Assembly: GCA_011620645.1 (NCBI GenBank)
Contig: WOYS01000077.1
Location: forward strand, 1 to 47,321
Direction of reading: 5' to 3'
Length of the DNA: 47,321 nt
Origin: Mycobacterium sp.
Lineage (GTDB): Bacteria; Actinomycetota; Actinomycetes; Mycobacteriales; Mycobacteriaceae
Positions within the stretch are counted from its first letter, which is position 1; every line of letters starts with the position of its first letter. A program made the position numbers and the translations under genes. The notes below the pieces were generated by a model. The model was not told the DNA's origin. It ran no database searches and saw only the letters and a list, made by a program, of their open reading frames with translations. Shown here piece after piece: positions 11,026-40,822 of the stretch.

Positions 11026-13353
11026 ATGACATCTCTTTCGCACGCACCCTCGCACGGCTCCGAAACCGACCAGCTACTGGACGGGCTCAACCCTCAGCAG
11101 CGCCAGGCCGTCCTGCACGAGGGATCCCCGCTGCTCATCGTGGCCGGCGCGGGATCGGGCAAGACCGCGGTCCTCACCCGGCGCATCGCCTACCTGCTGG
11201 CTGCCCGCGATGTCGGCGTCGGCCAGGTGCTGGCCATCACGTTCACCAACAAGGCCGCCGCCGAGATGCGCGAGCGCGTCGTGGGGCTCATCGGACCGCG
11301 TGCCCGCTCGATGTGGGTGTCCACGTTCCATGCCACCTGTGTGCGCATCCTGCGCAATCAGGCCTCGCTGCTGCCCGGATTGAAATCCAATTTCTCCATC
11401 TACGACGCCGACGACTCGCGGCGCCTGCTGATGATGATCGCCAAGGACATGGGCCTGGACACCAAGCGGTACACGCCGCGGTTACTGGCCAACAGCATCT
11501 CGAACCTCAAGAACGAGCTGATCGATCCGGACCGCGCCCGCTCGGATCTCAGCGAGACCGCCGACGACCTGTCCAAGACGGTCGTCTCGGTGTTCGGCGA
11601 ATACCAGCGGCGGCTGCGGGCGGCCAACGCGCTGGACTTCGACGATCTCATCGGCGAGACAGTCGCTGTGCTGCAAGCCTTTCCGCAGATCGCCCAGTAC
11701 TACCGGCGGCGCTTCCGGCACATCCTGGTCGACGAGTATCAGGACACCAACCATGCGCAGTACATGTTGGTACGTGAACTCGTGGGGCTCGAGACACACC
11801 CTGAGGATCCTGCCGGCGTCCCCGCCTCCGAGCTGTGCGTGGTGGGCGATGCCGACCAGTCCATCTACGCGTTCCGTGGCGCCACCATTCGCAACATCGA
11901 GGATTTCGAACGCGACTATCCGAACGCGACAACGATTCTGCTGGAACAGAATTACCGTTCCACGCAGACCATTCTCAATGCCGCCAACGCCGTCATATCC
12001 CGTAACGCGGGCCGCCGGGAGAAGCGGCTGTGGACCGATTCCGGTGAGGGTGAGCTGATCGTCGGCTACGTGGCCGACAACGAGCACGACGAGGCGCGGT
12101 TCGTCGCAGAGGAGATCGACTCCCTGGCCGACCGCAAAGAGATCTCGTATAACGACGTCGCAGTCTTCTATCGCACCAACAACTCGTCGCGCGCGCTGGA
12201 AGAAGTGTTCATCCGGGCGGGCATCCCGTACAAGGTCGTCGGCGGGGTGCGGTTCTACGAGCGCAAGGAGATTCGCGATATCGTCGCCTACCTTCGGGTG
12301 CTGGACAACCCGGGTGACGCGGTGAGCATGCGGCGAATCCTCAACACCCCGCGCCGAGGCATCGGCGACCGCGCCGAAGCCTGTGTGGCGGTCTACGCGG
12401 AGAACAGCGGTGCGTCCTTCAACGACGCGCTGCAGGCCGCCGCCGAAGGCCGGGTGCCGATGCTCAACATCCGCTCGGAGAAGGCGATCGCCTCGTTTGT
12501 ACAACTGCTCGACGGGCTGCGGGGCGCACGGGACGGCGAACTCGGCGATCTGGTCGAGGCGGTGCTGGACCGCACCGGTTACCGGCGCGAACTGGAAACC
12601 TCCAGTGACCCGCAGGATCTGGCCCGGTTGGACAACCTGAACGAACTCGTCAGCGTCGCACACGAATTCAGCATCGACCAGGCCAACGCCCAGGCCCTTC
12701 GCGAGGAAGAAGATCAGGTCGACGAGGACGTGCCCGACACCGGCGTGCTGGCCCAGTTCCTGGAGCGGGTGTCCCTGGTGGCCGACGCCGACGGCATCCC
12801 CGAGCCCGATTCGGGCGTCGTCACGATGATGACGCTGCACACCGCGAAGGGTCTGGAATTCCCAGTCGTTTTCGTGACCGGCTGGGAAGACGGCATGTTC
12901 CCGCACATGCGGGCTCTGGGCGACCCGACCGAACTGTCCGAGGAACGTCGGCTGGCCTATGTGGGCATCACCCGGGCCCGGCAGCGACTGTATCTGAGCC
13001 GCGCAAAGGTGCGCTCATCCTGGGGGCAACCGATGCTCAACCCGGAATCACGCTTCCTGCGCGAGATTCCGGAGGACCTGATCAATTGGCGTCGGGCCGA
13101 GGCGCCGCAGGCCACGCTGAGTGCTCCGCGGGTCGGGCGGTTCGCCGAGAACGCGCGGCCGGCGCCGACGAAGGCGCGCAACCGGACATTGATCACGCTG
13201 GAACCGGGAGACCGGGTCAACCACGACAAGTACGGCCTGGGCCGCGTCGAAGAGGTCAGCGGCATGGGGGAGTCGGCGATGTCGCTGATCGATTTCGGCA
13301 GTGCGGGCCGGGTCAAGCTGATGCACAATCACGCACCGGTGCAGAAGCTCTAG
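11026..13353 (+). CDS. uvrD1: ATP-dependent DNA helicase UvrD1 (UvrD/PcrA family)
   Basis: A 775-residue superfamily 1A helicase. Motif I is AGAGSGKT (residues 40-47). Motif Ia is ITFTNKAAAEM, motif II DEYQDTNHAQY, motif III VVGDADQSIYAFRGA, motif IV QNYRSTQTIL, motif V TLHTAKGLEFPVVF and motif VI YVGITRARQRLYLS. The C-terminus (LEPGDRVNHDKYGLGRVEEVSG) is the Tudor-like domain that contacts RNA polymerase in UvrD/PcrA. The role is unwinding in nucleotide excision repair and transcription-coupled repair. Cys453 (DRAEACVAVY) corresponds in position to Cys451 of M. tuberculosis UvrD1, reported to form the redox-dependent 2B-2B dimer. The ATG at 11026 fits the family length (771 in M. tuberculosis). 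Confidence 0.95.
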   Translation: MTSLSHAPSHGSETDQLLDGLNPQQRQAVLHEGSPLLIVAGAGSGKTAVLTRRIAYLLAARDVGVGQVLAITFTNKAAAEMRERVVGLIGPRARSMWVSTFHATCVRILRNQASLLPGLKSNFSIYDADDSRRLLMMIAKDMGLDTKRYTPRLLANSISNLKNELIDPDRARSDLSETADDLSKTVVSVFGEYQRRLRAANALDFDDLIGETVAVLQAFPQIAQYYRRRFRHILVDEYQDTNHAQYMLVRELVGLETHPEDPAGVPASELCVVGDADQSIYAFRGATIRNIEDFERDYPNATTILLEQNYRSTQTILNAANAVISRNAGRREKRLWTDSGEGELIVGYVADNEHDEARFVAEEIDSLADRKEISYNDVAVFYRTNNSSRALEEVFIRAGIPYKVVGGVRFYERKEIRDIVAYLRVLDNPGDAVSMRRILNTPRRGIGDRAEACVAVYAENSGASFNDALQAAAEGRVPMLNIRSEKAIASFVQLLDGLRGARDGELGDLVEAVLDRTGYRRELETSSDPQDLARLDNLNELVSVAHEFSIDQANAQALREEEDQVDEDVPDTGVLAQFLERVSLVADADGIPEPDSGVVTMMTLHTAKGLEFPVVFVTGWEDGMFPHMRALGDPTELSEERRLAYVGITRARQRLYLSRAKVRSSWGQPMLNPESRFLREIPEDLINWRRAEAPQATLSAPRVGRFAENARPAPTKARNRTLITLEPGDRVNHDKYGLGRVEEVSGMGESAMSLIDFGSAGRVKLMHNHAPVQKL

Positions 13354-13418
13354 CCGGTCTGTTCGCGTTCGGCCGCGCCTCAACTAGGGACCAAAGACCA
13401 TGTCGGGGCGGTTCTGAG

Positions 13419-13437
13419 GATGGTTAGCCTTACCATT
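13419..13437. promoter_or_regulatory. Putative IdeR/DtxR iron box upstream of feoA
   Basis: Position 13422-13434 reads GGTTAGCCTTACC. Its complement GGTAAGGCTAACC differs at one base from the central 13 bp of the IdeR consensus (GGTTAGGCTAACC). The outer bases are poorly matched. It lies 35-50 bp upstream of feoA, where binding of Fe-IdeR would repress. Placement before ferrous iron uptake genes strengthens the call. Confidence 0.7.
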
Positions 13438-13468
13438 ATCTGGAACGGATCTATCGGAAGGCGGGGCC

Positions 13469-13723
13469 ATGCAGCCGTTATCTGCTCAATCTCTGCTGCC
13501 CGAGGTGCCTGTCGGCCGTTTCGCGACCATCCTCGGGATCTCGGACGCTGCACCCGAGCATGTGGCACTTAGGTTGCGCCATTTGGGTTTTCGCGCCGGA
13601 AACAACGTCCAGACGATCCGCGTCGCACCGCTGGGTGATCCCACCGTGTACCGCCTGCTCGGCTACGAGATGTGTCTTCGCCGGCACGAAGCCCGCCATA
13701 TCGCGGTCGAGATGATGCCATGA
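13469..13723 (+). CDS. feoA: Ferrous iron transport protein FeoA
   Basis: An 84-residue SH3-like protein of the FeoA family, the small cytoplasmic partner of FeoB. Family features are EHVALRLRHLGFRAGNNVQTIRVAPLGDP..YRLLGYEMCLRRHEA..I: the LGF...G..V pattern, the APLGDP turn and the closing LRR/I strand. The stop overlaps the feoB start as ATGA (13720-13723), indicating translational coupling. It is first in a feoA-feoB-nfu operon that lies between uvrD1 and the M23 peptidase gene, where M. tuberculosis has nothing comparable. Confidence 0.85.
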   Translation: MQPLSAQSLLPEVPVGRFATILGISDAAPEHVALRLRHLGFRAGNNVQTIRVAPLGDPTVYRLLGYEMCLRRHEARHIAVEMMP

Positions 13724-15663
13724 GTGCGCCGGCATGCCATTCCAGCGGAACGATCGAGGCTCCTGACGGCCAACACCGCATTGCCCTGGTGGGCAGCCCC
13801 AACGCCGGTAAGACGAGCGTCTTCAACCAGCTGACGGGTCTGCGTGCCCGCACCGGTAACTACCCCGGCGTCACGGTCACCCGCAGCGTGGGTACCGGTA
13901 AGCACACCTGCCCGCACTGCGGCACGGTGAAGTTCACCCTGGAGGACCTGCCGGGCAGCTACAGCCTGCATCCGGTGAGCCCGGATGAGCAGGTGGTCGC
14001 CGATCTGCTGCACGGGCAGCTGCCTGGGATCGAGGTGCCCGATGCGCTTGCCGTGGTCGTCGATGCCACCGTGCTCGAGCGGTCACTGTCGTTGGTCGCC
14101 CAAGTGTTACGACTGGACCGCCCGACCATGATGATCTTGACCATGAACGACGAACTGGCCAACCGGGGCGGCCGGCTCGATGTCGAACGCTTCGCCACTG
14201 CGCTGGGCATACCCGTCGTCGGTGTGGTCGGCAGCCGAGGAAAGGGCTTCGAACCGCTACGGGAACTGCTTGCCGCGCCCGATGGTTGGCCGCGGGTACC
14301 GATCCCGCCGCCACGCGCGGATGACGAGTTCAACTCGTGGATCGCGTCCGTGCTCACTGCCGCGCAGTACCGGCCACCGGAGTCTGATCGGCGTAGCGGG
14401 AAGATCGACCGCGTGCTGCTCCACCCCCTGTGGGGCACCCTCGCGTTCATCGTGGTGATGTTCGTCATGTTCCAGGCCATCTTCACGGTCGCGGCACCGT
14501 TGCAGGACCTGATCGAACAGTTCTTCGTGTGGCTGGGCGTGGTGGTGATGACCACCATTCCCAACGAGACGGTCGCAGGACTACTGGGCAACGGTGTCAT
14601 CGGTGGCGTCGGCGCCGTCCTGGTTTTTATTCCCCAGATCATGTTGATGTTCCTGCTGATATCGCTGCTCGAGAACATCGGCTATATGGCCCGTGCGGCG
14701 TTCCTCGTGGACCGGATCATGACGACCACCGGACTGGAAGGCCGCGCGTTCGTCGCGATGCTGTCGTCGGTGGCCTGCGCGGTGCCCGGGATCATGGCCA
14801 CGCGCACGCTACCGTCATCGCGGGACCGCATCGCCACCACGATGGCGGCGCCGCTGATGACCTGCTCGGCGCGACTTCCCGTCTACATTCTGCTGATCGC
14901 CCTGCTCGTCGACCCGAATGCCCGTTGGGGACCCATCGGGTTTCAGGGACTGGTGATGTTCGGGCTGTACCTGCTGGGCGGTATCGCAGCGATGACGACG
15001 GCATGGCTCTTCAAGAGAGTCGTCCTGGGCGGTGACATGCTGCCCTTCTACATGGAGCTGCCGCCGTACCGGTTCCCGTCGGCGAAATCGGTCCTGCTGA
15101 GTATGTGGGATTCCGCGGCGGCGTTCCTGTGCAAAGCGGGCACCATCATCCTGGCGACATCGGTCGTGCTGTGGTTTCTGCTCAACCTGCCCCCACGCAC
15201 TGCCGAGATCGCCGGCATGGACGCGACAGCTGCGGCCGCGCATGTCATCGACAATTCATTCGCCGCGGCCATCGGCAAAGTCATCCAGCCGTTCTTCGAT
15301 CCGCTCGGTTTCGACTGGCGCATCTGTGTGGGGTTGATCGGCGCGATGGCGGCCCGCGAGGTGTTCGTCGCGACAGTGGGCCAGATATTCGCTGCCGGGG
15401 ATCCGGAGAGCCCCATGGAAGCGGTCCGCACCGCGGTGTGGACGTCTGGGCCCCAGCAGGGCGAATTGTTGTTCACACCGCCCACGGTCGCGGCACTGCT
15501 GATCTTCTTCGCCTTCGCGCTGTTGTGTATGTCCACCGTGGCCACCATTCGCCGGGAGACCAACTCGTGGCGCTGGCCGATGGCAGCCTGGGTGTACATG
15601 TTCGCGCTGGCCTGGATCGGTGGTGTGGCGGCCCGCTACCTCATGATGTGGGTGACGACATGA
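13720..15663 (+). CDS. feoB: Ferrous iron transporter FeoB, variant NTPase motifs
   Basis: A 647-residue inner-membrane Fe(II) transporter. The N-terminal NTPase domain has G1 GSPNAGKT (25-32), a G2 region TGNYPGVTVTR and G3 DLPG (76-79). G4 reads TMND (141-144) where most FeoB have NxxD. A CPHC pair (64-67) sits in the strand between G2 and G3. The membrane part starts near residue 240 (KIDRVLLHPLWGTLAFIVVM) and has about eight to ten helices, with the two Gate cores IGYMARAAFLVDR ... SVACAVPGIMATR and the later CKAGTIILATSVVLWFL ... VGLIGAMAAREVFVATVGQ. Start and stop overlap feoA and the nfu gene by ATGA. Regulation by iron via IdeR is likely. It is shorter than E. coli FeoB (773). Confidence 0.92.
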   Translation: MSAPACHSSGTIEAPDGQHRIALVGSPNAGKTSVFNQLTGLRARTGNYPGVTVTRSVGTGKHTCPHCGTVKFTLEDLPGSYSLHPVSPDEQVVADLLHGQLPGIEVPDALAVVVDATVLERSLSLVAQVLRLDRPTMMILTMNDELANRGGRLDVERFATALGIPVVGVVGSRGKGFEPLRELLAAPDGWPRVPIPPPRADDEFNSWIASVLTAAQYRPPESDRRSGKIDRVLLHPLWGTLAFIVVMFVMFQAIFTVAAPLQDLIEQFFVWLGVVVMTTIPNETVAGLLGNGVIGGVGAVLVFIPQIMLMFLLISLLENIGYMARAAFLVDRIMTTTGLEGRAFVAMLSSVACAVPGIMATRTLPSSRDRIATTMAAPLMTCSARLPVYILLIALLVDPNARWGPIGFQGLVMFGLYLLGGIAAMTTAWLFKRVVLGGDMLPFYMELPPYRFPSAKSVLLSMWDSAAAFLCKAGTIILATSVVLWFLLNLPPRTAEIAGMDATAAAAHVIDNSFAAAIGKVIQPFFDPLGFDWRICVGLIGAMAAREVFVATVGQIFAAGDPESPMEAVRTAVWTSGPQQGELLFTPPTVAALLIFFAFALLCMSTVATIRRETNSWRWPMAAWVYMFALAWIGGVAARYLMMWVTT

Positions 15664-16130
15664 CCATACTGCTGCACGCCGAGGCCACCCCGGATCCACT
15701 GACGCTGCGCTGGATCACCGCCTCGGGTGGCATACCGCCCGAGGCGATTGACCGGTTGATCGCCGAAGGCACCTTGGATCGTGTGGAGGTGGTCGGGACC
15801 GAGATCCTCACGCGGCTGGCTCCCGGGCACTCGTGGCCGATCGACGGTCCCAGGGTGAGAAGTGCTCTTTTCCAGGCATTCTCGGATGCCGAACCGAAGG
15901 ATCTGCTGGATCGGATCACCGGCCTGTTGGCCCGCGAAGTGGGGCCTTTCATCACCTCGCACGGGGGTGCAATCCGGGTACTGTCCGTGAGAGACGATGT
16001 CGTCGAAGTCGCGCTCGACGGCACCTGTGGGAACTGCTCGTTTCGGAACCAGACGTTGGGCAACATCATCACCGGTGCGGTGCGGGCAGCGTTCCCCCAC
16101 ATCCGCGAGGTTCGCGCGGTGCGCAGTTGA
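15660..16130 (+). CDS. Nfu/NifU-domain Fe-S protein coupled to feoB
   Basis: A 156-residue protein. The N-terminal half (HAEATPDPLTLRWITASGG, then LTRLAPGHSWPIDGPRVRSALFQAF) resembles the Nfu N-terminal domain, which starts with TPNP.TLKF and contains an A.LF.I motif. The C-terminal half is a NifU C-terminal domain: VGPFITSHGGAIRVLSVRDDVVEVALDG, then the Fe-S cysteines C123 and C126 in GTCGNCSF, then TLGNIITGAVRAAFPHI. Such proteins carry or deliver [4Fe-4S] clusters. Its start overlaps the feoB stop (ATGA). It takes the position that FeoC, also an Fe-S protein, has in enterobacteria, so a role in handling imported iron or controlling FeoB is a reasonable inference. Confidence 0.8.
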   Translation: MTILLHAEATPDPLTLRWITASGGIPPEAIDRLIAEGTLDRVEVVGTEILTRLAPGHSWPIDGPRVRSALFQAFSDAEPKDLLDRITGLLAREVGPFITSHGGAIRVLSVRDDVVEVALDGTCGNCSFRNQTLGNIITGAVRAAFPHIREVRAVRS

Positions 16131-16142
16131 GGCGCGAGCTGA

Positions 16143-16762
16143 AGCAAAGGAAGTTGTACAGAGGTCGTTGCTGGGAGTGCCTCTCGCGGTTGCCCGAACC
16201 TTGGCCGACGCGACGAGGCTCTACGGTGGGACGGCGGTGGATGCGACTCGGACCGGTGCCGAGCTGGTGGGCGCCTCGGTAACCGCTGTGGCAGCGGGGC
16301 TGGTGGCCGATGCCCTGACGGTCGCGCAGTCCGTTGCGGGACACCCCTGGCGTCACCGCAGTGCACATCATCGGGCCGACTGGGTCCGCCGTGGTGACGG
16401 TGACCCGCGGCGGACCCAGCGCAGCGCAACTCACCCGAGTGGTCGCTGACGCCGAAAAGTGTTGTGGCGCACCGTACCTAGCGCCCGGACCGCCATTGCC
16501 GGGCGATGATGCCATCCTCGCCTCGCGGATTACCGCGACTGCGGTCTCCACGGTGGGGCTGGGTGTAGCGGCCCTCGGCAGCCTGTTGCCCGTGCGCGGC
16601 ATCCCGAGGTTGTTGGTGGCACCTGTGGCGATGGCCGACCATCACCCCAAGGTGCTGGTGCCGATCCTGGCGCATTCGAGGCCCTGTGTCGTCAGGACCC
16701 TGGCGCCCATGGGTCTGCTCGGGCGGGCCGACACCCCACGGCCCGGCTATCGCCGCGGGTGA
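16143..16762 (+). pseudogene. Relic resembling the N-terminus of a large P-type ATPase (CtpH/CtpI-like)
   Basis: Two adjacent frames carry protein-like sequence. From about 16153 one reads VVQRSLLGVPLAVARTLADA, then TAVDATRTGAELVGASVTAV and VAGH, and then turns into Arg/His-rich nonsense near 16345. From 16334 another frame picks up with DTPGVTAVHIIGPTGSAVVT, then TRGGPSAAQLTRVVADAEK and a membrane-like ILASRITATAVSTVGLG, then ADHHPKVLVPIL, and ends RPGYRRG. The layout (repetitive amphipathic helices, an HMA-like beta-alpha unit, then AL.ASRI..AA...GLG and a VDH.P motif) resembles the N-terminal domain of large mycobacterial P-type ATPases. No ATPase core (DKTGT) follows. It is probably a frameshifted, 3'-truncated gene directly behind the feo operon. 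The assignment is from memory of the family and is moderate at best. Confidence 0.45.
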
Positions 16763-16769
16763 CTGACAG

Positions 16770-17333
16770 CTAGCTGCGCGCCCAGTCCCGGGTCGCAGGC
16801 ATCAGGGTCAGGACCATCGCGGCCACCGGCAGGACCGGCATGGCGTACACCACCGGGTGCAGTTTGGCGCCGGCCAGGAACAGGCTGCCGAAGATGAGCA
16901 GCCCGACGGCAGCGCCGACGATGATCAGCAACCGGCCCATCCGGCGCTGCAGCAGCAGCGCTATCAGACCGCCGATACCGGCGGCGGCCGAGATGGCGGT
17001 GAGGAATCCGATCGCGATGCAGAACAGCAGATCGGTGCTCCACCACCCGGCGATCAGATCGGTGGCGATGACGGCGGTGGCCCAGCCGCTGAGGATGCTC
17101 AGTGTGGCGGCGGCGATGGCACCGACCGGGCCGGGAGCACGACGCGAGGGCACCGCGACGGGGGTGGGCCGCGGGATGTAGGTGGTTTGGCCCGGCTCGG
17201 CCGGGGTTGGCACGTCGGACGTGAGAGCGTCACTCAGCGGGGGTGGGGCGAGCGCGGGGAACGAGCCGGTGGGAGTCCGGCGGATGATGCGAGGCAAATC
17301 GGGCGACGGCTCTGCCGGTGGATCCGGGGTCAC
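16770..17333 (-). CDS. Four-helix membrane protein with proline-rich cytoplasmic N-terminus
   Basis: A 187-residue protein of unknown function. Residues 1-70 are Pro-rich and polar (PDPPAEPSPDLPRIIRR, PALAPPPLSDAL, TTYIPRPTPVAVPSRR). Four hydrophobic helices follow: GAIAAATLSILSGWATAVI, LLFCIAIGFLTAISAAAGIG, LLIIVGAAVGLLIFGSLFLA and VVYAMPVLPVAAMVLTLM, ending ATRDWARS. Similar small proteins with a disordered Pro/Thr head are common in actinobacteria and often lack a known role. The GTG at 17333 gives the shortest sensible protein. It lies 32 bp downstream of the M23 peptidase gene on the same strand and may be cotranscribed. Confidence 0.7.
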   Translation of the reverse strand: MTPDPPAEPSPDLPRIIRRTPTGSFPALAPPPLSDALTSDVPTPAEPGQTTYIPRPTPVAVPSRRAPGPVGAIAAATLSILSGWATAVIATDLIAGWWSTDLLFCIAIGFLTAISAAAGIGGLIALLLQRRMGRLLIIVGAAVGLLIFGSLFLAGAKLHPVVYAMPVLPVAAMVLTLMPATRDWARS

Positions 17334-20862: not shown

Positions 20863-20950
20863 CGGGTCCACCTCGGCCGATCGTCTCGGCCCGACCGACC
20901 CACGCCGGGGTGCGCTAGCGTGGGTTCGAAATCGCTCACACAGGAGAGTC

Positions 20951-25393: not shown

Positions 25394-25418
25394 CGCCCGA
25401 TCACGCCATTCGAGCAAA

Positions 25419-29563: not shown

Positions 29564-30331
29564 TCACGCCCAGTCGGGGCTGCGTTTCTGCAGGAAGGCC
29601 AGCATGCCCTCGCGCGCCTCGGCGGAGGTGAACAACTCGGCAGACTGAGTGGTCAACGCGTCGGCGTGGGCGTCGAAGCCGGCGAGGATCGCAGCCGTCG
29701 TGAGCGCCTTGGACACCGACAGGCCCTGCGGGGATGCCTTGGCGATGTCGGCGGTGAAGGCGGCCACCGTGGCCTCGACATCGTCGGCGGCGACGGTGAT
29801 CAGCCCGATCGCGGCGGCTTCCTGGGGGCCGAACTTCTCGCCGGTGAGGAAGTAGCGGCCCGCGGCGCGCGAGGTCAGCTTCGGGAGCAGGGTCAGCGAG
29901 ATGATCGACGGGGCCACGCCGATGCGTGCCTCGGTGAGGGCGAAGGTGCTTTGTGGTCCGGCCACCGCGATATCGCACGCCCCGATCAACCCCATTCCGC
30001 CGGCCCGGACGTGACCGTCGACGGCGGCGATCACCGCGACCGGTGATTCCAGGATCGTCCGCAGCAGCCGGGTCATCTCATGGGCGCGATGCACCGCGAT
30101 GTCGGCAGGGCCGGAGGCCTTCCCCCCTGTTGAAGCCTCGCTCAGGTCGGCGCCGGCGCAGAACGTCCGGCCCGTGTGCCCGAGCACCACCGCGCGCACT
30201 CCGGCGGCGACCGCATCCTCGAAGCCCCGGTGCAACTGCTCGACAAGAGTGGTCGACAGGGCGTTGTGGTTGTGCGGGGAGTCCAGCGTGAGCCTGGCGA
30301 GCCGGCCCTCGAGGGCGTAGCGGACGAGCAT
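29564..30331 (-). CDS. echA7: Enoyl-CoA hydratase/isomerase family protein (EchA7-like)
   Basis: A 255-residue crotonase-fold protein. The oxyanion-hole segments are GRTFCAGADLSE and GHVRAGGMGLIGACDIAVAG, followed by FALTEARIGVAPSIISL. The second catalytic Glu of typical hydratases is present (LTEARIG), but the first (GGGCE in rat enoyl-CoA hydratase) is replaced, the stretch reading GGMGL. Relatives of this kind include hydratases for branched glutaconyl-CoA type intermediates. It is the last gene of the operon atuA-fadE13-(carboxylase scar)-fadE12-echA7, 14 bp after fadE12. It probably hydrates a branched unsaturated acyl-CoA made by the FadE proteins. Confidence 0.85.
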   Translation of the reverse strand: MLVRYALEGRLARLTLDSPHNHNALSTTLVEQLHRGFEDAVAAGVRAVVLGHTGRTFCAGADLSEASTGGKASGPADIAVHRAHEMTRLLRTILESPVAVIAAVDGHVRAGGMGLIGACDIAVAGPQSTFALTEARIGVAPSIISLTLLPKLTSRAAGRYFLTGEKFGPQEAAAIGLITVAADDVEATVAAFTADIAKASPQGLSVSKALTTAAILAGFDAHADALTTQSAELFTSAEAREGMLAFLQKRSPDWA

Positions 30332-30345
30332 CAGTAGGGCCCCTG

Positions 30346-31506
30346 TCAGTAAGAACGCGGCAGACCGAGTGAGGTCTGCGCGACGAAGTTCAGGATCATC
30401 TCCCGGCTCACCGGCGCAATGCGAGCCAGTCGTGAGCCCGTCACCGCCGCGGCGATGCCGTACTCGGAGGTCAGGCCGTTGCCACCCAGCGATTGCACGG
30501 CCTGGTCGACGGCCCGCACCGACGCCTCGCCTGCGGCGTATTTGGCCATGTTCGCCGATTCCGCAGCGCCGAAGTCGTCCCCGTTGTCATAGAGGGCCGC
30601 GGCCTTCTGCATCATCAGCCGGGCCAGTTCGATCTCGATGTGGTTCTGCGCCAACGGATGTGACAGGCCCTGATGCGACCCGATCGGTACCTTCCAGACC
30701 TGGCGGGTCTTGACGTATTTGACGGCCTTGTCGATGGCGAACCGGCCCATGCCGACAGCGCTGGCGGCGCCCATGATGCGCTCGGGGTTCAGCCCGGCGA
30801 ACAACTGCGCGATCGCGGCGTCCTCAGAGCCGACCAGTGCGTCCGACGGCACCCGGACATCGTCGAGGAAGACCTGGAACTGGTTCTCCGGGCTGATGAT
30901 CTCCATGTCGATCTTCGTCCAGCTCAGGCCCGGGGTATCGGTGGGCACCACGAACAGCGCGGGCTTGAGGTTGCCGGTCTTGTGATCCTCGGTGCGGCCC
31001 ACCACCAGGACGGCCTGCGCCTGGTCGATCCCGGAGATGAAGGTCTTCTGCCCCTTGATGATCCAGTCGCTACCGTCGCGTCGGGCGGTGGTGGTGATCC
31101 GGTGGGAGTTGGAGCCGGCATCCGGTTCGGTGATGGCGAACGCCATGGTGATCGATCCGTCGGCGATGCCCGGGATCCAGCGCTTCTTCTGCTCCTCGGT
31201 GCCGAACTTGCTGATGATCGTTCCGTTGATGGCCGGCGAGACGACCATCATCAGCAGCGGGCAGCCGCCGGCCGACATCGCCTCCATCACGATCGACAGC
31301 TCGTACATTCCGGCGCCACCGCCACCGTATTCCACGGGGAGATTGACGCCGATGAATCCGAGTTTTCCCGCTTCCGACCATAATTCGTCGGTGTGGGCGC
31401 CGGCGCGCGCCTTCTCCAGGTAGTAGTCCTGGCCATAGTTGGCGGCCATCGCCGAGACGGACTTGCGCAGCGCCTGCTGCTCTTCGGTTTCGATGAAGCC
31501 GGTCAT
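30346..31506 (-). CDS. fadE12: Acyl-CoA dehydrogenase (FadE12-like)
   Basis: A 386-residue FAD-dependent acyl-CoA dehydrogenase. It has ITMAFAITEPDAGSNSHRITTTARR (FAD/substrate signature), WIIKGQKTFISGIDQAQ, RIMGAASAVGMGRFAIDKAV and VQSLGGNGLTSEYGIAA. The loop that carries the catalytic Glu in many family members (YEGT) reads RIAPVSREMI here, so the base must lie elsewhere or activity differs. The start codon overlaps the stop of the short biotinyl-domain frame (TCATGA). The order and C-terminus (LGLPRSY) match Rv0972c. Possible substrate: citronellyl- or other branched acyl-CoA. Confidence 0.88.
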   Translation of the reverse strand: MTGFIETEEQQALRKSVSAMAANYGQDYYLEKARAGAHTDELWSEAGKLGFIGVNLPVEYGGGGAGMYELSIVMEAMSAGGCPLLMMVVSPAINGTIISKFGTEEQKKRWIPGIADGSITMAFAITEPDAGSNSHRITTTARRDGSDWIIKGQKTFISGIDQAQAVLVVGRTEDHKTGNLKPALFVVPTDTPGLSWTKIDMEIISPENQFQVFLDDVRVPSDALVGSEDAAIAQLFAGLNPERIMGAASAVGMGRFAIDKAVKYVKTRQVWKVPIGSHQGLSHPLAQNHIEIELARLMMQKAAALYDNGDDFGAAESANMAKYAAGEASVRAVDQAVQSLGGNGLTSEYGIAAAVTGSRLARIAPVSREMILNFVAQTSLGLPRSY

Positions 31507-31673
31507 GACTGATCTCCTTCGGGACGTGCCACGTTCTCTCGACGAGCCATTATCGTGCCGACCTCGACCTGCTGGCCGGCCCGCAGGTTGAATTCTGTCA
31601 GCACACCTTCACTCGGGGCGGTGATGGTGTGCTCCAGTTTCATCGGATCCAGAGTCGATGTCAGCCGGGTCAT
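31503..31673 (-). pseudogene. In-frame accD2::accA2 deletion scar (half biotinyl domain)
   Basis: A 56-codon frame lies where M. tuberculosis has accD2 and accA2 (about 1,200 codons). Residues 1-10, MTRLTSTLDP, look like the beginning of an AccD2 carboxyltransferase (STLDP). Residues 11-45, from MKLEHTITAPSEGVLTE to QQVEVGTIMARRE, are the C-terminal half of a biotinyl domain as found at the end of AccA2. The biotin-acceptor Lys (MKL) is residue 12. The first half of the barrel is missing, so biotinylation is unlikely. The ATG overlaps the fadE13 stop, and the TGA overlaps the fadE12 start, so reading and coupling through the operon are preserved. One precise deletion joining the two genes in frame explains all of this. 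Whether a peptide is made is unknown. Confidence 0.75.
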
Positions 31674-32818
31674 TGCATGCCCATCGTCTTGGCCGCCAGC
31701 GCGGTGAGGATCTCGGTGGTGCCGCCGCCGATGCCCAGGATGCGCATATCGCGGTACTGGCGCTCCACCTCGGATTCGGCCATGTAACCCATCCCGCCGA
31801 ACAGTTGGACGGCCTGATTGGCGACCCATTCCCCGGCCTCGACCGCGGTGTTCTTGGCGAAACAGACCTCGGTGATCAGGTTCGTCTCACCGGACATCTC
31901 GCGTTCCACCAGGCGGTGCGTGTAGACGCGTGCCACGTCGATGCGACGTGCCATGTCCGCCAACGTGTTCTGCACGGCCTGCCGGGAGATCAGCGGCCTG
32001 CCGAAGGTCTCCCGATCCCGGCACCACTGCACGGTCAGATCCAGACACCGCTGGGCGCTGGCGTAGGCCTGGGCGGCCAGCCCCACCCGTTCGGAGACGA
32101 AGGCGCCTGCGATCTGCACGAATCCGCTGTTCTCGGCTCCCACCAGGTTTGCGGCGGGCACGCGCACATCCGTGTACGACAGCTCGGCGGTGTCGCTTGA
32201 GCGCCAACCCATCTTCTCCAGCTTGCGGCTGACCTCGAACCCCGGGCTGTTCTTGTCGACCACGAGCAACGACACCCCGGCCGCTCCCGGCCCGCCGGTG
32301 CGGACCGCGGTCACCACGTAATCGGCGCGGACGCCGGAGGTGATGTAGGTCTTGGCGCCGTTGACGATGAAATCGTCCCCGTCGCGAACCGCTTTGGTCC
32401 TCAGGTGGCCGACATCGGATCCGCCCCCGGGTTCGGTGATCGCCAGCGAGCCGATGAGATCGCCACGCAACGTCGGACGTACGTAGGTCTCGATGAGGCG
32501 CTGGTCGCCCGATGCGATCATGTGCGGCAACGAGATGCCGCAGGTGAACAGTGAGGCGAAGGTGCCGCCGGGCACCCCGGCGTGGTGCAGTTCCTCGCAG
32601 ATGATCACCGCGTCGGCGCCGTCACCGCCTCCGCCGCCGACCGATTCTGGGTAGGACGCGCCGAGCAACCCGGCGGCACCGGCCTTGACGTGCAGTTCGC
32701 GCGGTAGCTCGCCGATGCGCTCCCAGTCCTGCGCGTAGGGCAGGATCTCGCGTTCGGCGAACGCGCGCACCGTCTTTCGCAGACCTTCACGTTCGGGGGT
32801 GTGCCAGATGTCGGTCAC
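31670..32818 (-). CDS. fadE13: Acyl-CoA dehydrogenase (FadE13-like)
   Basis: A 382-residue acyl-CoA dehydrogenase. It starts (V/M)TDIWHTPEREGLRKTVRAFAERE. It contains GSLAITEPGGGSDVGHLRTKA, FIVNGAKTYITSG, RVGLAAQAYASAQRCLDLT, and the C-terminal AVQLFGGMGYMAESEVERQYRDMRILGIGGGTTEIL, typical of the isovaleryl/citronellyl-type FadE group. The GTG at 32818 overlaps the atuA stop (GTGA), and its stop overlaps the start of the scar frame. It probably introduces the double bond into a branched acyl-CoA. The missing downstream carboxylase raises the question of where its product goes. Confidence 0.9.
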   Translation of the reverse strand: MTDIWHTPEREGLRKTVRAFAEREILPYAQDWERIGELPRELHVKAGAAGLLGASYPESVGGGGGDGADAVIICEELHHAGVPGGTFASLFTCGISLPHMIASGDQRLIETYVRPTLRGDLIGSLAITEPGGGSDVGHLRTKAVRDGDDFIVNGAKTYITSGVRADYVVTAVRTGGPGAAGVSLLVVDKNSPGFEVSRKLEKMGWRSSDTAELSYTDVRVPAANLVGAENSGFVQIAGAFVSERVGLAAQAYASAQRCLDLTVQWCRDRETFGRPLISRQAVQNTLADMARRIDVARVYTHRLVEREMSGETNLITEVCFAKNTAVEAGEWVANQAVQLFGGMGYMAESEVERQYRDMRILGIGGGTTEILTALAAKTMGMQ

Positions 32819-34572
32819 AACAGCCTTTCCGGGATATCGAGATGTCGGGAACGCAGCCATTCCCCGAGGCCCTTGGCCTGCGGATCGAACCGTGCCTGAT
32901 AGGCGACGCCCTGGCCGAGGATGCCGTCGATGATGAAGTTGACGGCCCGCAGGTTGGGCAGCAGATGACGCGTCACGGGCAGATCAGCTGTCTCGGGCAG
33001 CAGCTCGCGCAGCTTGTCCACGGTCAAAGTATGTGCCAGCCAATGCCATCCGGGATCGCTGCGCACCCAGACCCCGACATTGGCGGACCCACCCTTGTCC
33101 CCGCTGCGGGCGCCGGCGATACGGCCCAGCGGTGCCCGCACAGTCGGGCCCGCTTCCGGCGTTTCGGGCAGTGGCGGGTCGTCGACGGACGCCAGTTCCA
33201 GGGTTTGGGTGGCCGCGGCGATGTCGACCCGAGTGCCGTCGGCGTGCACCGCGATATGCGGTACCAGGGCGGCGTCGACGTATCCGGGCTTGAACACCCC
33301 GTACACCTGGCCGTCGCCGGGTGGTGCGGTCGAGGTGAATCCCGGATAGCTGGCCAGCGCCAGTTCGACTGCGGTGGAGGAGAATTGACGGCCCACGATC
33401 TTCGGGTCGGGGTCGCGGACCACGCAGTGCAGCAGTGCGCTGGCGGCTTCCTCGGTGTCGGCGTCGGGGTGGTCGGAGCGCGCGAGCGTCCACTGCAGCT
33501 CGGCCGGCCGGACCGTGAGGTGGCTTTCCAGCTGGGACTTGATCAGCTCGGCCTTGGCCTCGATGTCGAGGCCGGTGAGCACGAACGTCGTCGCATTGCG
33601 GAAACCGCCGATGCTGTTCAGTGACACCTTCAGCATCGGAGGCGGTGCTTCGCCGCGCACGCCGCTCACCCGGACCCGGTCGGGAGCCTCGGTGGACAGC
33701 TGGATCGAGTCGACCCGCAGCGTCACGTCCGGATTGGGGTAACGCGCACCGGCGATCTCATAGAGCAGCTGTGCGGTGACGGTGTCGGTGCTGACCAGGC
33801 CGCCGGTCCCACTGTGTTTGGTGATGACCGAGGAGCCGTCGGCGGCGATCTCGGCGATCGGGAAGCCTGGGTGGTTCAGATCGGGAACTTCGGTGAAGAA
33901 GGAGAAGTTGCCGCCGGTGGCCTGGGTGCCGCATTCGATGATGTGCCCGGCTGCGACGGCACCGGCCAGCGCATCATGGTCGGTGCGGGCCCAGCCGAAG
34001 TGGGCGGCGGCCGGTCCGACGATCACCGAGGCGTCGGTGACCCGTCCGGTGACCACCACATCGGCACCGGAGTTCAGGCAGTCGACGATGCCCCAAGCGC
34101 CCAGGTAGGCGTTGGCCGACAACAACGATCCCCGGGTCGATCCCCGGGTCGCTTCGCTCTCCCCCGCCGGCCCGGACCCGAAACCGAGCTCGTCGGCGCG
34201 GCCCACGAGATCATCGCCCTCGACATGGGCGACCCGCACGGCCAATCCGAGGCGGTCGGCGAGGTCACGCACGGCGGAGGCCAGCCCGGCCGGGTTGAGT
34301 CCGCCCGCGTTGGCAACGATCTTCACGCCTCGGTCCAGAGCCAGCCCGAGGGTGTCTTCGAGCTGACGCAGGAACGTCTTGGCATAGCCGAGATCGGGGT
34401 TCCTGGCCCGGTCGCGGGCCAGGATCAGCATGGTGAGCTCGGCCAGATAATCGCCGGTCAGGTAGTCGAGATCGCCGCCTTCGAGCATCTCGCGCATGGC
34501 GGCGATGCGGTCACCGTAGAACCCCGAGCAGTTGCCGATTCGCACTGCCGCAGACTTCACCCGTACTCCCAT
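32815..34572 (-). CDS. AtuA-family (acyclic terpene utilisation) protein, Rv0976c-like
   Basis: A 585-residue protein of the AtuA/DUF1446 family. The N-terminus VRIGNCSGFYGDRIAAMREML is diagnostic. GDYLAELTMLILARDRARNPDLGYAKTF, KIVANAGGLNPAGLA, NAYLGAWGIVDCLNSGADVVVTGRVTDASV and GGNFSFFTEVPDL follow. The C-terminal third has RIAGARSGDKGGSANVGVWVR and LRAVNFIIDGILGQGVA, both conserved. AtuA is required for growth on citronellol in Pseudomonas; its biochemical role is not settled. A short insertion near residue 145 contains TRGSTRGS from a 12-bp tandem repeat. First gene of the operon; its stop overlaps the fadE13 start. Confidence 0.88.
   Translation of the reverse strand: MGVRVKSAAVRIGNCSGFYGDRIAAMREMLEGGDLDYLTGDYLAELTMLILARDRARNPDLGYAKTFLRQLEDTLGLALDRGVKIVANAGGLNPAGLASAVRDLADRLGLAVRVAHVEGDDLVGRADELGFGSGPAGESEATRGSTRGSLLSANAYLGAWGIVDCLNSGADVVVTGRVTDASVIVGPAAAHFGWARTDHDALAGAVAAGHIIECGTQATGGNFSFFTEVPDLNHPGFPIAEIAADGSSVITKHSGTGGLVSTDTVTAQLLYEIAGARYPNPDVTLRVDSIQLSTEAPDRVRVSGVRGEAPPPMLKVSLNSIGGFRNATTFVLTGLDIEAKAELIKSQLESHLTVRPAELQWTLARSDHPDADTEEAASALLHCVVRDPDPKIVGRQFSSTAVELALASYPGFTSTAPPGDGQVYGVFKPGYVDAALVPHIAVHADGTRVDIAAATQTLELASVDDPPLPETPEAGPTVRAPLGRIAGARSGDKGGSANVGVWVRSDPGWHWLAHTLTVDKLRELLPETADLPVTRHLLPNLRAVNFIIDGILGQGVAYQARFDPQAKGLGEWLRSRHLDIPERLL
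34127..34150. repeat. 12-bp perfect tandem repeat within the atuA-like gene
   Basis: GATCCCCGGGTC occurs twice in a row (34127-34138 and 34139-34150). It adds four in-frame residues (TRGS TRGS) just before the conserved SANAYLGAWG block. Confidence 0.9.
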
Positions 34573-39596: not shown

Positions 39597-39922
39597 TTCT
39601 TTCTCCTGGACATGCGAGACAAACTGAGGCGCGCTATGTGGTCGCGCTGGTCACGACACCCGGCGCTGCCTGGAGAACATTCCAGCAAATTCACACCCCG
39701 GTTCGCCGACCTCATGCCGTTGTCGCCCTCGCGTTGCCGGGTCGATGACGCACCGTTATGTTCCTCTTGTCAACGATGAGCAATTCGTAAGAGCAACATG
39801 TGGAGATTCTCATTCGCATCACATGGAGGTCTTGCAAGGTGCGGCGTCTCGGTAGGGCCGGGATCCGCGTCAACTAGACAACGGTTGACAGCACACCAAC
39901 CGTCGGAACAGCTAGGGAGAAC
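39597..39922. other. Long upstream region of the mspA-family gene
   Basis: These 326 bp show no convincing frame. They contain TTGTCA-15 bp-TAAGAG and TTGCAA-15 bp-TAGGGC as candidate promoters with short spacers. Close to the gene is a 7-bp inverted repeat, ACGGTTG (39881-39887) with CAACCGT (39897-39903), that could form a hairpin 19 nt before the start. The mspA gene of M. smegmatis is known for a long untranslated leader, so this may be transcribed leader. Confidence 0.4.
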
Positions 39923-40576
39923 ATGAAGGTAATCAGTCGGGTGCTGATCGCGATGATCGCGGCCATCGCGTCGCTGTTCGTGAGCACGGGCACCTCCAAC
40001 GCGGGTCTGGACAACGAGCTGAGCCTGGTGGACGGCAAGGACCGGACCCTGACCATTCAGCAGTGGGATACCTTCCTCAATGGTGTGTTCCCGCTCGACC
40101 GCAACCGCCTGACCCGCGAGTGGTTCCACTCCGGCAAGGCCAAGTACATGGTTTCGGGTCCGGACGCTAAGAAATTCCAGGGCGTGCTGGAACTCGGTTA
40201 CCAGGTGGGCTTCCCGTGGTCGCTGGGTGTGGGCATCAACTTCAGCTACACGACCCCGAACATCGCGTTGGACACTGCGGACTTCGGCGGTTTTGGTACT
40301 AACAGTTACCTGATTGATCCCATCCCGTCCGTCTCGTCGCCGCCGCTGTTCCCCGGCGCCTCGATCAGCGCGGACCTCGGCAACGGCCCCGGCATCCAGG
40401 AAGTCGCGACCTTCTCCGCCGACGTCAAAGGCGCGAGCGGCGCGGTTGCCGTCTCCAACGCGCACGGCACCGTCACCGGTGCTGCCGGTGGCGTGCTGCT
40501 CCGTCCGTACGCACGGCTCGTCGCCTCGGAGGGCGACAGCGTCACCACCTACGGCGATCCCTGGAACATGAACTGA
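39923..40576 (+). CDS. MspA-family outer membrane porin
   Basis: A 217-residue porin precursor. The signal peptide is 1-27 (hydrophobic VLIAMIAAIASLFVS, cleavage after SNA). The mature protein begins GLDNELSLVDGKDRTLTIQQ, almost as MspA, and ends SVTTYGDPWNMN. The octameric outer-membrane channel admits small hydrophilic solutes, sugars and phosphate. The constriction loop differs: where MspA has IDDGD (Asp90, Asp91, Asp93) this protein has LDTAD, so one ring Asp is Thr, and the loop that follows (FGGFGTNSYLIDPIPSVSSP) is about six residues longer. It is more distant from MspA than MspB-D. It is a single gene with its own terminator-insulated region. Confidence 0.93.
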   Translation: MKVISRVLIAMIAAIASLFVSTGTSNAGLDNELSLVDGKDRTLTIQQWDTFLNGVFPLDRNRLTREWFHSGKAKYMVSGPDAKKFQGVLELGYQVGFPWSLGVGINFSYTTPNIALDTADFGGFGTNSYLIDPIPSVSSPPLFPGASISADLGNGPGIQEVATFSADVKGASGAVAVSNAHGTVTGAAGGVLLRPYARLVASEGDSVTTYGDPWNMN

Positions 40577-40822
40577 CTCTGACTCTGATTCCGGTTCTGA
40601 CCAGTCGGTCACCGGTGTGAACTGCGCCGGGAACCGACTGGTCTATCAGTCGGCAACCATGGGACGGCTAGGGCTAGGCCTGAAATCGCTGGGCCGCGGC
40701 GGGCGTTCAGTAGCCACGGTTGGCAGGCACGGCTGGACCCAGCCTGATATTCTCAAGAAAGGGAGCAAATGGCCCGGAGCCTCAGTCCGTGCGTTATCCC
40801 CGAAAACGAAAGGGGTGTGCTG

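What the first reader, a model, noticed from the sequence alone, without database searches (positions are those of the whole stretch)
31503..31673. Carboxylase pair accD2-accA2 replaced by a 56-codon in-frame scar that keeps both translational overlaps
The operon order here is atuA-fadE13-X-fadE12-echA7; M. tuberculosis has accD2 and accA2 in place of X. X starts like AccD2 (STLDP) and continues as the C-terminal half of an AccA2 biotinyl domain from the biotin-Lys motif (MKLEHTITAP) on. Both ATGA overlaps are intact, so the deletion is in frame and non-polar. The pathway has thus lost its carboxylation step, as in AtuC/AtuF of the acyclic-terpene pathway, while dehydrogenases, hydratase and AtuA remain. 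Either the route was rewired, a carboxylase is supplied from elsewhere, or the half-domain gained a use.
Basis: partly seen in the sequence, partly recalled or inferred. Interest (0 to 1): 0.75.

Follow-up and report, generated by a model that had tools for sequence, protein, structure and literature searches.

The report
Mycobacterial operon with its carboxylase deleted
In one mycobacterial genome the two genes of a carboxylase enzyme have been cut out of an operon so cleanly that its neighbours can still be translated, and the same genome assembly carries a second, horizontally spread set of the same kind of enzyme genes that might do the missing job.

Summary
ORF X (31503-31673, minus strand, 56 aa) is a deletion scar: 10 codons of accD2 joined in frame to the last 46 of accA2. 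In 75 of 75 fetched loci spanning the site, accD2 and accA2 are present. Of 396 genus genomes, 379 keep a native AccD2; of the 17 without, only the window's was seen with complete flanking genes on one contig (ten of the other 16 were too fragmented to judge). The scar is old: 12 nonsynonymous to 11 synonymous changes in its accA2 part, against 7 to 28 pooled in five relatives. The flanking genes remain under purifying selection. X keeps both ATGA overlaps and fadE12's Shine-Dalgarno, so I read it as a translational relay, not an enzyme. So "the pathway lost its carboxylation step" holds for the operon, not necessarily the cell. Compensation is plausible but unproven: chance carriage is about 14%, and C110 could be contamination.

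The parts
31503..31673 (-). ORF X, the deletion scar (56 codons + stop)
31644..31673 (-). 5' part of the scar: first 10 codons of accD2 (MTRLTSTLDP)
   Evidence: 9 of 10 residues as in G034 AccD2
31503..31643 (-). 3' part of the scar: last 46 codons of accA2 plus stop, from the biotin-lysine motif on
   Evidence: Pfam Biotin_lipoyl positions 36-71 of 73 only
31643..31644 (.). deletion junction; in relatives accD2 has CTGGACCCG or similar and accA2 CTGGARGCG or similar here, so the ends share short imperfect similarity
   Evidence: blastn flanks overlap by 8-9 bp here
31524..31532 (-). 9-bp in-frame insertion in the scar, absent from P9-22 accA2
   Evidence: sequence comparison
31514..31519 (-). 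AAGGAG, Shine-Dalgarno-like sequence for fadE12 kept inside the scar
   Evidence: window sequence shown; AAGGAG in the last 24 nt of accA2 in 61 of 75 relatives
31503..31506 (-). ATGA overlap X stop / fadE12 start
   Evidence: same overlap accA2/fadE12 in 62 of 75 relatives
31670..31673 (-). ATGA overlap fadE13 stop / X start
   Evidence: same overlap fadE13/accD2 in 48 of 81 loci, the commonest spacing
31670..32860 (-). fadE13 (acyl-CoA dehydrogenase), intact, branch Ka/Ks 0.083
30346..31506 (-). fadE12 (acyl-CoA dehydrogenase), intact, branch Ka/Ks 0.13
29564..30331 (-). echA7 (enoyl-CoA hydratase), intact, branch Ka/Ks 0.155
32815..34572 (-). atuA (Pfam AtuA PF07287), intact, branch Ka/Ks 0.146

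Best explanation
X is the scar of a natural, in-frame deletion, so far seen in this one genome, that removed almost all of accD2 and accA2 from the conserved operon atuA-fadE13-accD2-accA2-fadE12-echA7. Shown: gene content, frame, junction, presence of the pair in relatives, age signal, continued constraint on the neighbours. Inferred: what is left works only as a translational relay. Ribosomes finishing fadE13 restart at X through the ATGA overlap, read 56 codons and restart at fadE12 through the second ATGA and the Shine-Dalgarno kept in the accA2 tail, so fadE12 and echA7 stay expressed. The peptide has the biotin lysine but only the second half of the biotinyl domain and no carboxylase parts, so it should have no carboxylase activity. 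Inferred, less sure: the cell tolerated the loss because it holds another AccD2-type carboxylase, the accD'-accA'-fadE12' module on contigs C110/C104, acting on the same or a related branched enoyl-CoA, or because the niche no longer needs the step.
For: Both flanks continue into accD2-accA2 in G034, and P9-22, G238 and G096 have the same extra stretch; 75 of 75 spanning loci have both genes. Native AccD2 at E <= 1e-255 in 379 of 396 genus genomes, not in the window's; no better own-genome match than 68% (AccD2) and 57% (AccA2), both on C110, leaving aside the scar itself. Scar tail 12 N: 11 S against 7 N: 28 S pooled in five relatives, Fisher p 0.021. Flanking genes' Ka/Ks on this branch 0.083-0.155, within the 0.028-0.244 of 12 other window genes. 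A loose SD motif lies in the 20 nt before fadE12 in 75 of 75 relatives against 15% of random 20-mers of one locus, and AAGGAG in 61 of 75; ATGA overlap in 62 of 75. C110: AccD' has the AccD2-type segment and lacks the 3-residue AccD1 insert; in the 155 columns where AccD1 and AccD2 are each uniform and differ, AccD' equals AccD2 in 98 and AccD1 in 15; FadE' is 58% identical to FadE12. AccD' groups with AccD2, not AccD1, in the tree, support 100/99 (the program warned of long branches towards the outgroup).
Against: Only one genome shows the deletion; no second strain was available. The tail's N:S is a little below strict neutrality (p 0.017 to 0.044), which an early constrained phase explains but which also allows weak remaining constraint. 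The consensus was made from the same five relatives, which lowers their counts. FadE12's Ka/Ks is twice as high on this branch as on the P9-22 branch (0.130 vs 0.058), but that of purH, sk467 and lon211 is likewise doubled or more and that of vwa raised (0.109 vs 0.061), so it looks lineage-wide. Compensation: 55 of 396 genus genomes carry AccD', so finding it here by chance has odds near 14%; 54 of the 379 genomes that keep native AccD2 also have AccD', and of the 17 without AccD2 only this one has it, so there is no genus-wide association. The genome is listed at 5.2% contamination, so C110/C104 might not belong to it; tetranucleotide composition does not decide.
Confidence: 0.72

Rival explanations
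1. Plain genome erosion: the pair was lost by drift because the pathway is no longer needed, and the remaining genes are simply decaying more slowly. The island carboxylase is unrelated to the loss.
For: The genome is 3.98 Mb, while the nine best-scoring relatives are listed at 5.4-6.8 Mb. The window shows further clean losses, e.g. 2.0 kb at 25397|25398 relative to P9-22 and G096. Ka/Ks is raised on this branch in several window genes, FadE12 included.
Against: atuA, fadE13, fadE12 and echA7 keep full frames and Ka/Ks of 0.083-0.155 on this branch although the scar is old enough to have drifted. In G322 and G089 the matches to the operon are short and piecemeal, i.e. there it seems to have decayed as a whole.
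Confidence: 0.4
2. Xenologous takeover: the mobile accD'-accA'-fadE12' module took over the step and thereby made native accD2-accA2 redundant; the native atuA, fadE13 and echA7 now work with it.
For: Same gene order, AccD2-type specificity segment, nearest paralogue of the lost pair in the assembly.
Against: No genus-wide link between having the module and losing native AccD2. The module brings its own fadE12-like gene, ligase, thiolase and hydratases, so it may run a separate pathway.
Confidence: 0.3
3. The half biotinyl domain gained a use, for example as a biotin acceptor or a regulator, perhaps by pairing with itself.
For: Frame kept over 56 codons despite a 9-bp insertion; lysine and 16 of 19 highly conserved positions kept; N:S slightly under neutral.
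Against: Faster amino-acid change than in AccA2, including 3 of 19 positions that are at least 95% conserved in 73 tails. Keeping the frame is already explained by coupling, and the chance of no stop is about one half. AlphaFold gave no fold (mean pLDDT 54), but the full-domain control failed too (38), so that test is void.
Confidence: 0.04
4. Assembly artefact or engineered deletion.
For: Clean in-frame join with a GGATCC (BamHI, recalled) hexamer at the junction; single genome.
Against: The scar carries its own substitutions and a 9-bp insertion, so it has aged. The junction similarity is far too short for assembler collapse (inference). The hexamer lies in the accD2-derived part, where relatives have CTGGACCCG or CTCGATCCA.
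Confidence: 0.03

Closest known systems
M. tuberculosis / M. smegmatis AccD2-AccA2 (Rv0974c-Rv0973c) operon
   Same: Same gene pair in one operon; a laboratory double deletion of accD2-accA2 in M. smegmatis grows like wild type in 7H9 medium (PMC4347857: passages and Discussion part 1).
   Different: Here the pair was lost in nature, in frame, leaving a 56-codon chimera.
Island accD'-accA'-fadE12' module (G000 C110, G034, G096, G020, G002, G121; accD'-accA' also on a M. chubuense NBB4 plasmid)
   Same: Same three-gene core and AccD2-type specificity segment.
   Different: 68%/57% identical to the native AccD2/AccA2 of G034, patchy, on islands, followed by its own CoA ligase; substrate unknown.
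AtuC/AtuF geranyl-CoA carboxylase (acyclic terpene pathway; pathway recalled)
   Same: Same enzyme class; the window has an AtuA-family gene.
   Different: AccD2 is closer to methylcrotonyl-CoA carboxylase than to geranyl-CoA carboxylase among solved structures; the EchA7 match to gamma-carboxygeranoyl-CoA hydratase is far below its cut-off (134.7 vs 426 bits).
Stand-alone biotin/lipoyl carrier proteins of 71 aa (NCBIfam PRK05889; their occurrence in mycobacteria is recalled)
   Same: Small protein with the biotin-lysine motif.
   Different: That family covers a whole domain (71 positions); X has only the second half.

Membership tests
AccD2-AccA2 acyl-CoA carboxylase | complete carboxyltransferase subunit | tested here: not met
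   only 10 codons left; no own-genome AccD2 match above 68%
AccD2-AccA2 acyl-CoA carboxylase | complete biotin carboxylase subunit with whole biotinyl domain | tested here: not met
   only the last 46 codons; Biotin_lipoyl 36-71 of 73; best long own-genome AccA2 match 57%, on C110
Functional biotin carrier domain | full two-half barrel around the biotin lysine | tested here: not met
   first half missing by sequence; the full domain in L078 matches 4-73 of 73; structure prediction void
In-frame deletion scar | both ends match the two genes in relatives, frame kept | tested here: met
In-frame deletion scar | ancestral state is the intact pair | tested here: met
   75 of 75 spanning loci; 379 of 396 genomes keep AccD2
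AccD2-type carboxylase (for C110 AccD') | groups with AccD2 rather than AccD1/MCC; AccD2-type segment | tested here: met
AccD2-type carboxylase (for C110 AccD') | same substrate as AccD2 | not testable with these tools
   role of AccD2 itself left open in PMC4347857
Acyclic terpene (Atu) pathway | geranyl-CoA carboxylase pair AtuC/AtuF | tested here: inconclusive
   AccD2 of G034 nearer MCC than GCC by sequence; substrate not tested

The most novel reading that the evidence does not exclude
A horizontally moving carboxylase module (accD'-accA'-fadE12') has taken over the carboxylation step of a chromosomal operon, allowing the operon's own carboxylase to be excised in frame while the rest stays under selection: an operon that now depends on an enzyme encoded on an island.
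Probability: 0.28. Interest if true: 0.6.

Novelty: new member of a known kind. Interest (0 to 1): 0.42.

Why it matters
The role of AccD2-AccA2 was called an open question by the group that made the laboratory deletion (PMC4347857, Discussion part 1). A natural, old carboxylase-minus version of the operon whose other genes are still under selection suggests that those genes are useful without the native pair, and points to an island-borne AccD2-type enzyme as a second, directly comparable protein for finding the substrate.

Tried and rejected
Rfam (gathering thresholds) and tRNA scans of the window gave nothing. At E <= 1e-10 NCBIfam gave AtuA no family and the FadEs none above cut-off; EchA7 passed for an enoyl-CoA hydratase family. 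AlphaFold of X and of a full biotinyl-domain control both failed, so no structural claim is made. Paper searches: I saw listings with titles and abstract starts only and noticed no report of a natural accD2-accA2 loss in them; one search returned no paper. Of the papers only PMC4347857 was opened (find passages, Discussion part 1 of 2). Considered and rejected: an independent small protein family (both ends match the lost genes); an assembly or laboratory artefact (the scar has aged). A general link between carrying AccD' and losing AccD2 was tested and not found.

Rows dropped before counts: six of 81 loci did not reach fadE12 and were left out of the 75. In one of the 75 (L091) the best AccA2 segment covers only residues 258-653, so that copy may be interrupted. 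Two of 75 tails were dropped for the 34-column conservation count (73 used). For two of the 75 loci the fadE12 start was not placed sensibly (spacings None and -1167); they are still in the 75 of the loose SD count. One locus (L074) gave no AccD row for the tree (20 rows). G357's more distant sequence was left out of the AccD' set in the column count.

Full report
The observation. ORF X at 31503-31673 (minus strand) is 56 codons long. I compared the window with the corresponding places of its closest held relatives. In G034 the window is colinear on both sides, but between the flanks that meet at window 31644-31652 the relative has about 3.4 kb more. That stretch holds a 531-residue AccD2 starting MTRLRSTLDP and an AccA2 ending in the biotin motif and tail that X carries. 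P9-22, G238 and G096 show the same extra stretch at the same place. From the hit coordinates I computed 3,411 missing bases against G034 and P9-22, 3,490 against G238 and 3,404 against G096. These lengths differ with the relatives' own indels, so the in-frame claim rests on X reading both genes in their own frames. At the join, relatives have CTGGACCCG or similar in accD2 and CTGGAAGCG, CTGGAGGCC or similar in accA2, so the ends share short imperfect similarity. That fits illegitimate joining (inference).

Is the ancestral state intact? Yes. A search of genome contigs with FadE13 gave the best 80 loci of a longer list. With L067 added there were 81, of which 75 reach through to fadE12; in all 75 both accD2 and accA2 were detected, though in L091 the best AccA2 segment is partial. 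A genus search with AccD2 found a copy at E <= 1e-255 in 379 of 396 genomes. The 17 without are the window's genome and 16 others, which I searched together. In ten of these (G008, G295, G298, G308, G315, G334, G343, G346, G406, G419) the assembly is in 330 to 1,110 contigs and the flanks lie on separate contigs or are partly unseen, so loss cannot be told from a gap. In six (G075, G089, G115, G183, G322, G369) the flanks are missing, diverged or piecemeal in the listing, which was cut short; where they are diverged, a diverged AccD2 may also have missed the cut-off. I saw no second genome with complete flanking genes and only the carboxylase gone.

Age and constraint. In the 36 alignable tail codons, X differs from a consensus of five clade members by 12 nonsynonymous and 11 synonymous changes; the five relatives together show 7 and 28 (Fisher p 0.021; the consensus was made from the same five, which lowers their counts). 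Strict neutrality is mildly rejected (p 0.017-0.044 depending on the transition rate), as expected if the tail was constrained before the deletion and free after it. A 9-bp in-frame insertion relative to P9-22 has also arisen. No stop codon is expected about half the time anyway, so an open frame is not evidence of function. The flanking genes on the window's branch have Ka/Ks of 0.083 (FadE13), 0.13 (FadE12), 0.146 (AtuA) and 0.155 (EchA7); the 12 other window genes measured span 0.028-0.244. FadE12 is at twice its P9-22-branch value (0.058), but several genes outside the operon are raised alike, which points to a lineage-wide easing of selection. So the operon is not visibly decaying more than its surroundings.

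Why the scar looks as it does. The tail of accA2 carries the Shine-Dalgarno-like sequence of fadE12: a loose motif stands in the 20 nt before fadE12 in 75 of 75 relatives against 15% of random 20-mers of L077, and AAGGAG itself is in the last 24 nt of accA2 in 61 of 75. The accA2/fadE12 ATGA overlap is present in 62 of 75, and fadE13 and accD2 overlap by ATGA in 48 of 81 loci, the commonest spacing. A deletion that kept the accD2 start, the frame and the accA2 end keeps expression of fadE12 and echA7 (inference). I infer that X is a relay. It has only the second half of the biotinyl domain, while the intact domain of a relative matches nearly the whole profile. An AlphaFold test was void because its control failed.

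The unexpected part. Searching the window's own assembly with the deleted proteins found no native copy elsewhere, but did find a pair on contig C110 at 68% (AccD) and 57% (AccA) identity; the pair on C26 is the AccD1/AccA1 type (52% and 48%; with the AccD1 segment). C110 (5,026 bp) carries accD', accA' and a FadE that is 58% identical to FadE12 and 34% to FadE13. Its end overlaps the start of contig C104 by exactly 55 bp, where an AMP-binding CoA ligase follows as in G002 and G034, with thiolase, dehydratase-like, hydratase and dehydrogenase genes further on. AccD' has the AccD2-type segment at the place that a published comparison links to substrate choice in AccD1 (PMC4347857, Discussion part 1), and lacks the AccD1 three-residue insert. 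In a tree it groups with AccD2 and the more distant G357 sequence, support 100/99, apart from AccD1 (the program warned of long branches towards the outgroup).

The module moves. G034, G096 and G020 share 26-38 kb around it at 99.98-100% identity, although the native operon regions of G034 and G020 are 79-84% identical and those of G034 and G096 88-90%. G002 has the module at 95% to theirs; the window assembly's own copy is more diverged, 87-88% to these four and 77% to G121, so it is not part of that recent spread. A 615-kb plasmid of M. chubuense NBB4 carries a 77.6% relative of 64% of C110. AccD' occurs in 55 of 396 genus genomes at E <= 1e-255; among the nearest relatives G034 and G096 have it, while P9-22 (G187), G238 and G393 do not.

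Does it compensate? Possible, not shown. For: same type, same gene order, nearest paralogue in the assembly. Against: 54 genomes hold both kinds of AccD without losing the native one, only this one of the 17 lacking native AccD2 has the module, and random carriage is about 14%. The module brings its own partner genes. The assembly is listed as 5.2% contaminated; tetranucleotide composition of C110 lies inside the range of the core's own 5-kb pieces, and C104 is slightly outside the 20-kb range, so this does not decide.

Comparison with what is known. In M. smegmatis the accD2-accA2 pair has been deleted in the laboratory with growth like wild type in standard medium, and its role was left open (PMC4347857, passages and Discussion). 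Gene names such as purH are recalled labels.

Verdict. A real, well-resolved natural in-frame deletion with an ordinary relay scar, made more interesting by a mobile AccD2-type module in the same assembly.

Noticed in passing
window 25397|25398: Another clean loss: P9-22 and G096 have about 2.0 kb more here (two ORFs in P9-22), G238 about 1.0 kb.
   Followed up: partly
window 13353-16776: About 3.4 kb present in the window and absent at the same place in G238.
   Followed up: no
window 20868-20881: G238 has about 5.6 kb between the bases that match here, another apparent loss in the window's lineage.
   Followed up: no
L223/L224, L225/L226, L229/L230: G034, G096 and G020 share 26-38 kb at 99.98-100% identity although native operon regions of G034 and G020 are 79-84% identical: apparently a very recently transferred catabolic island carrying the carboxylase module.
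   Followed up: partly
L069:4972-5026 and L239:1-55: Contigs C110 and C104 overlap by exactly 55 bp in a GC-rich stretch with an inverted repeat, the likely reason for the assembly break.
   Followed up: yes
window 39730-40577: G238 has two nearby matches to this stretch where the window has one.
   Followed up: no
G389:C1:5100027 and 5181845: One relative carries two AccD2 copies 82 kb apart with equal scores.
   Followed up: no
whole assembly: 3.98 Mb against 5.4-6.8 Mb in the nine best-scoring relatives, suggesting genome reduction in this lineage; window Ka/Ks also tends to be higher than on the P9-22 branch.
   Followed up: partly
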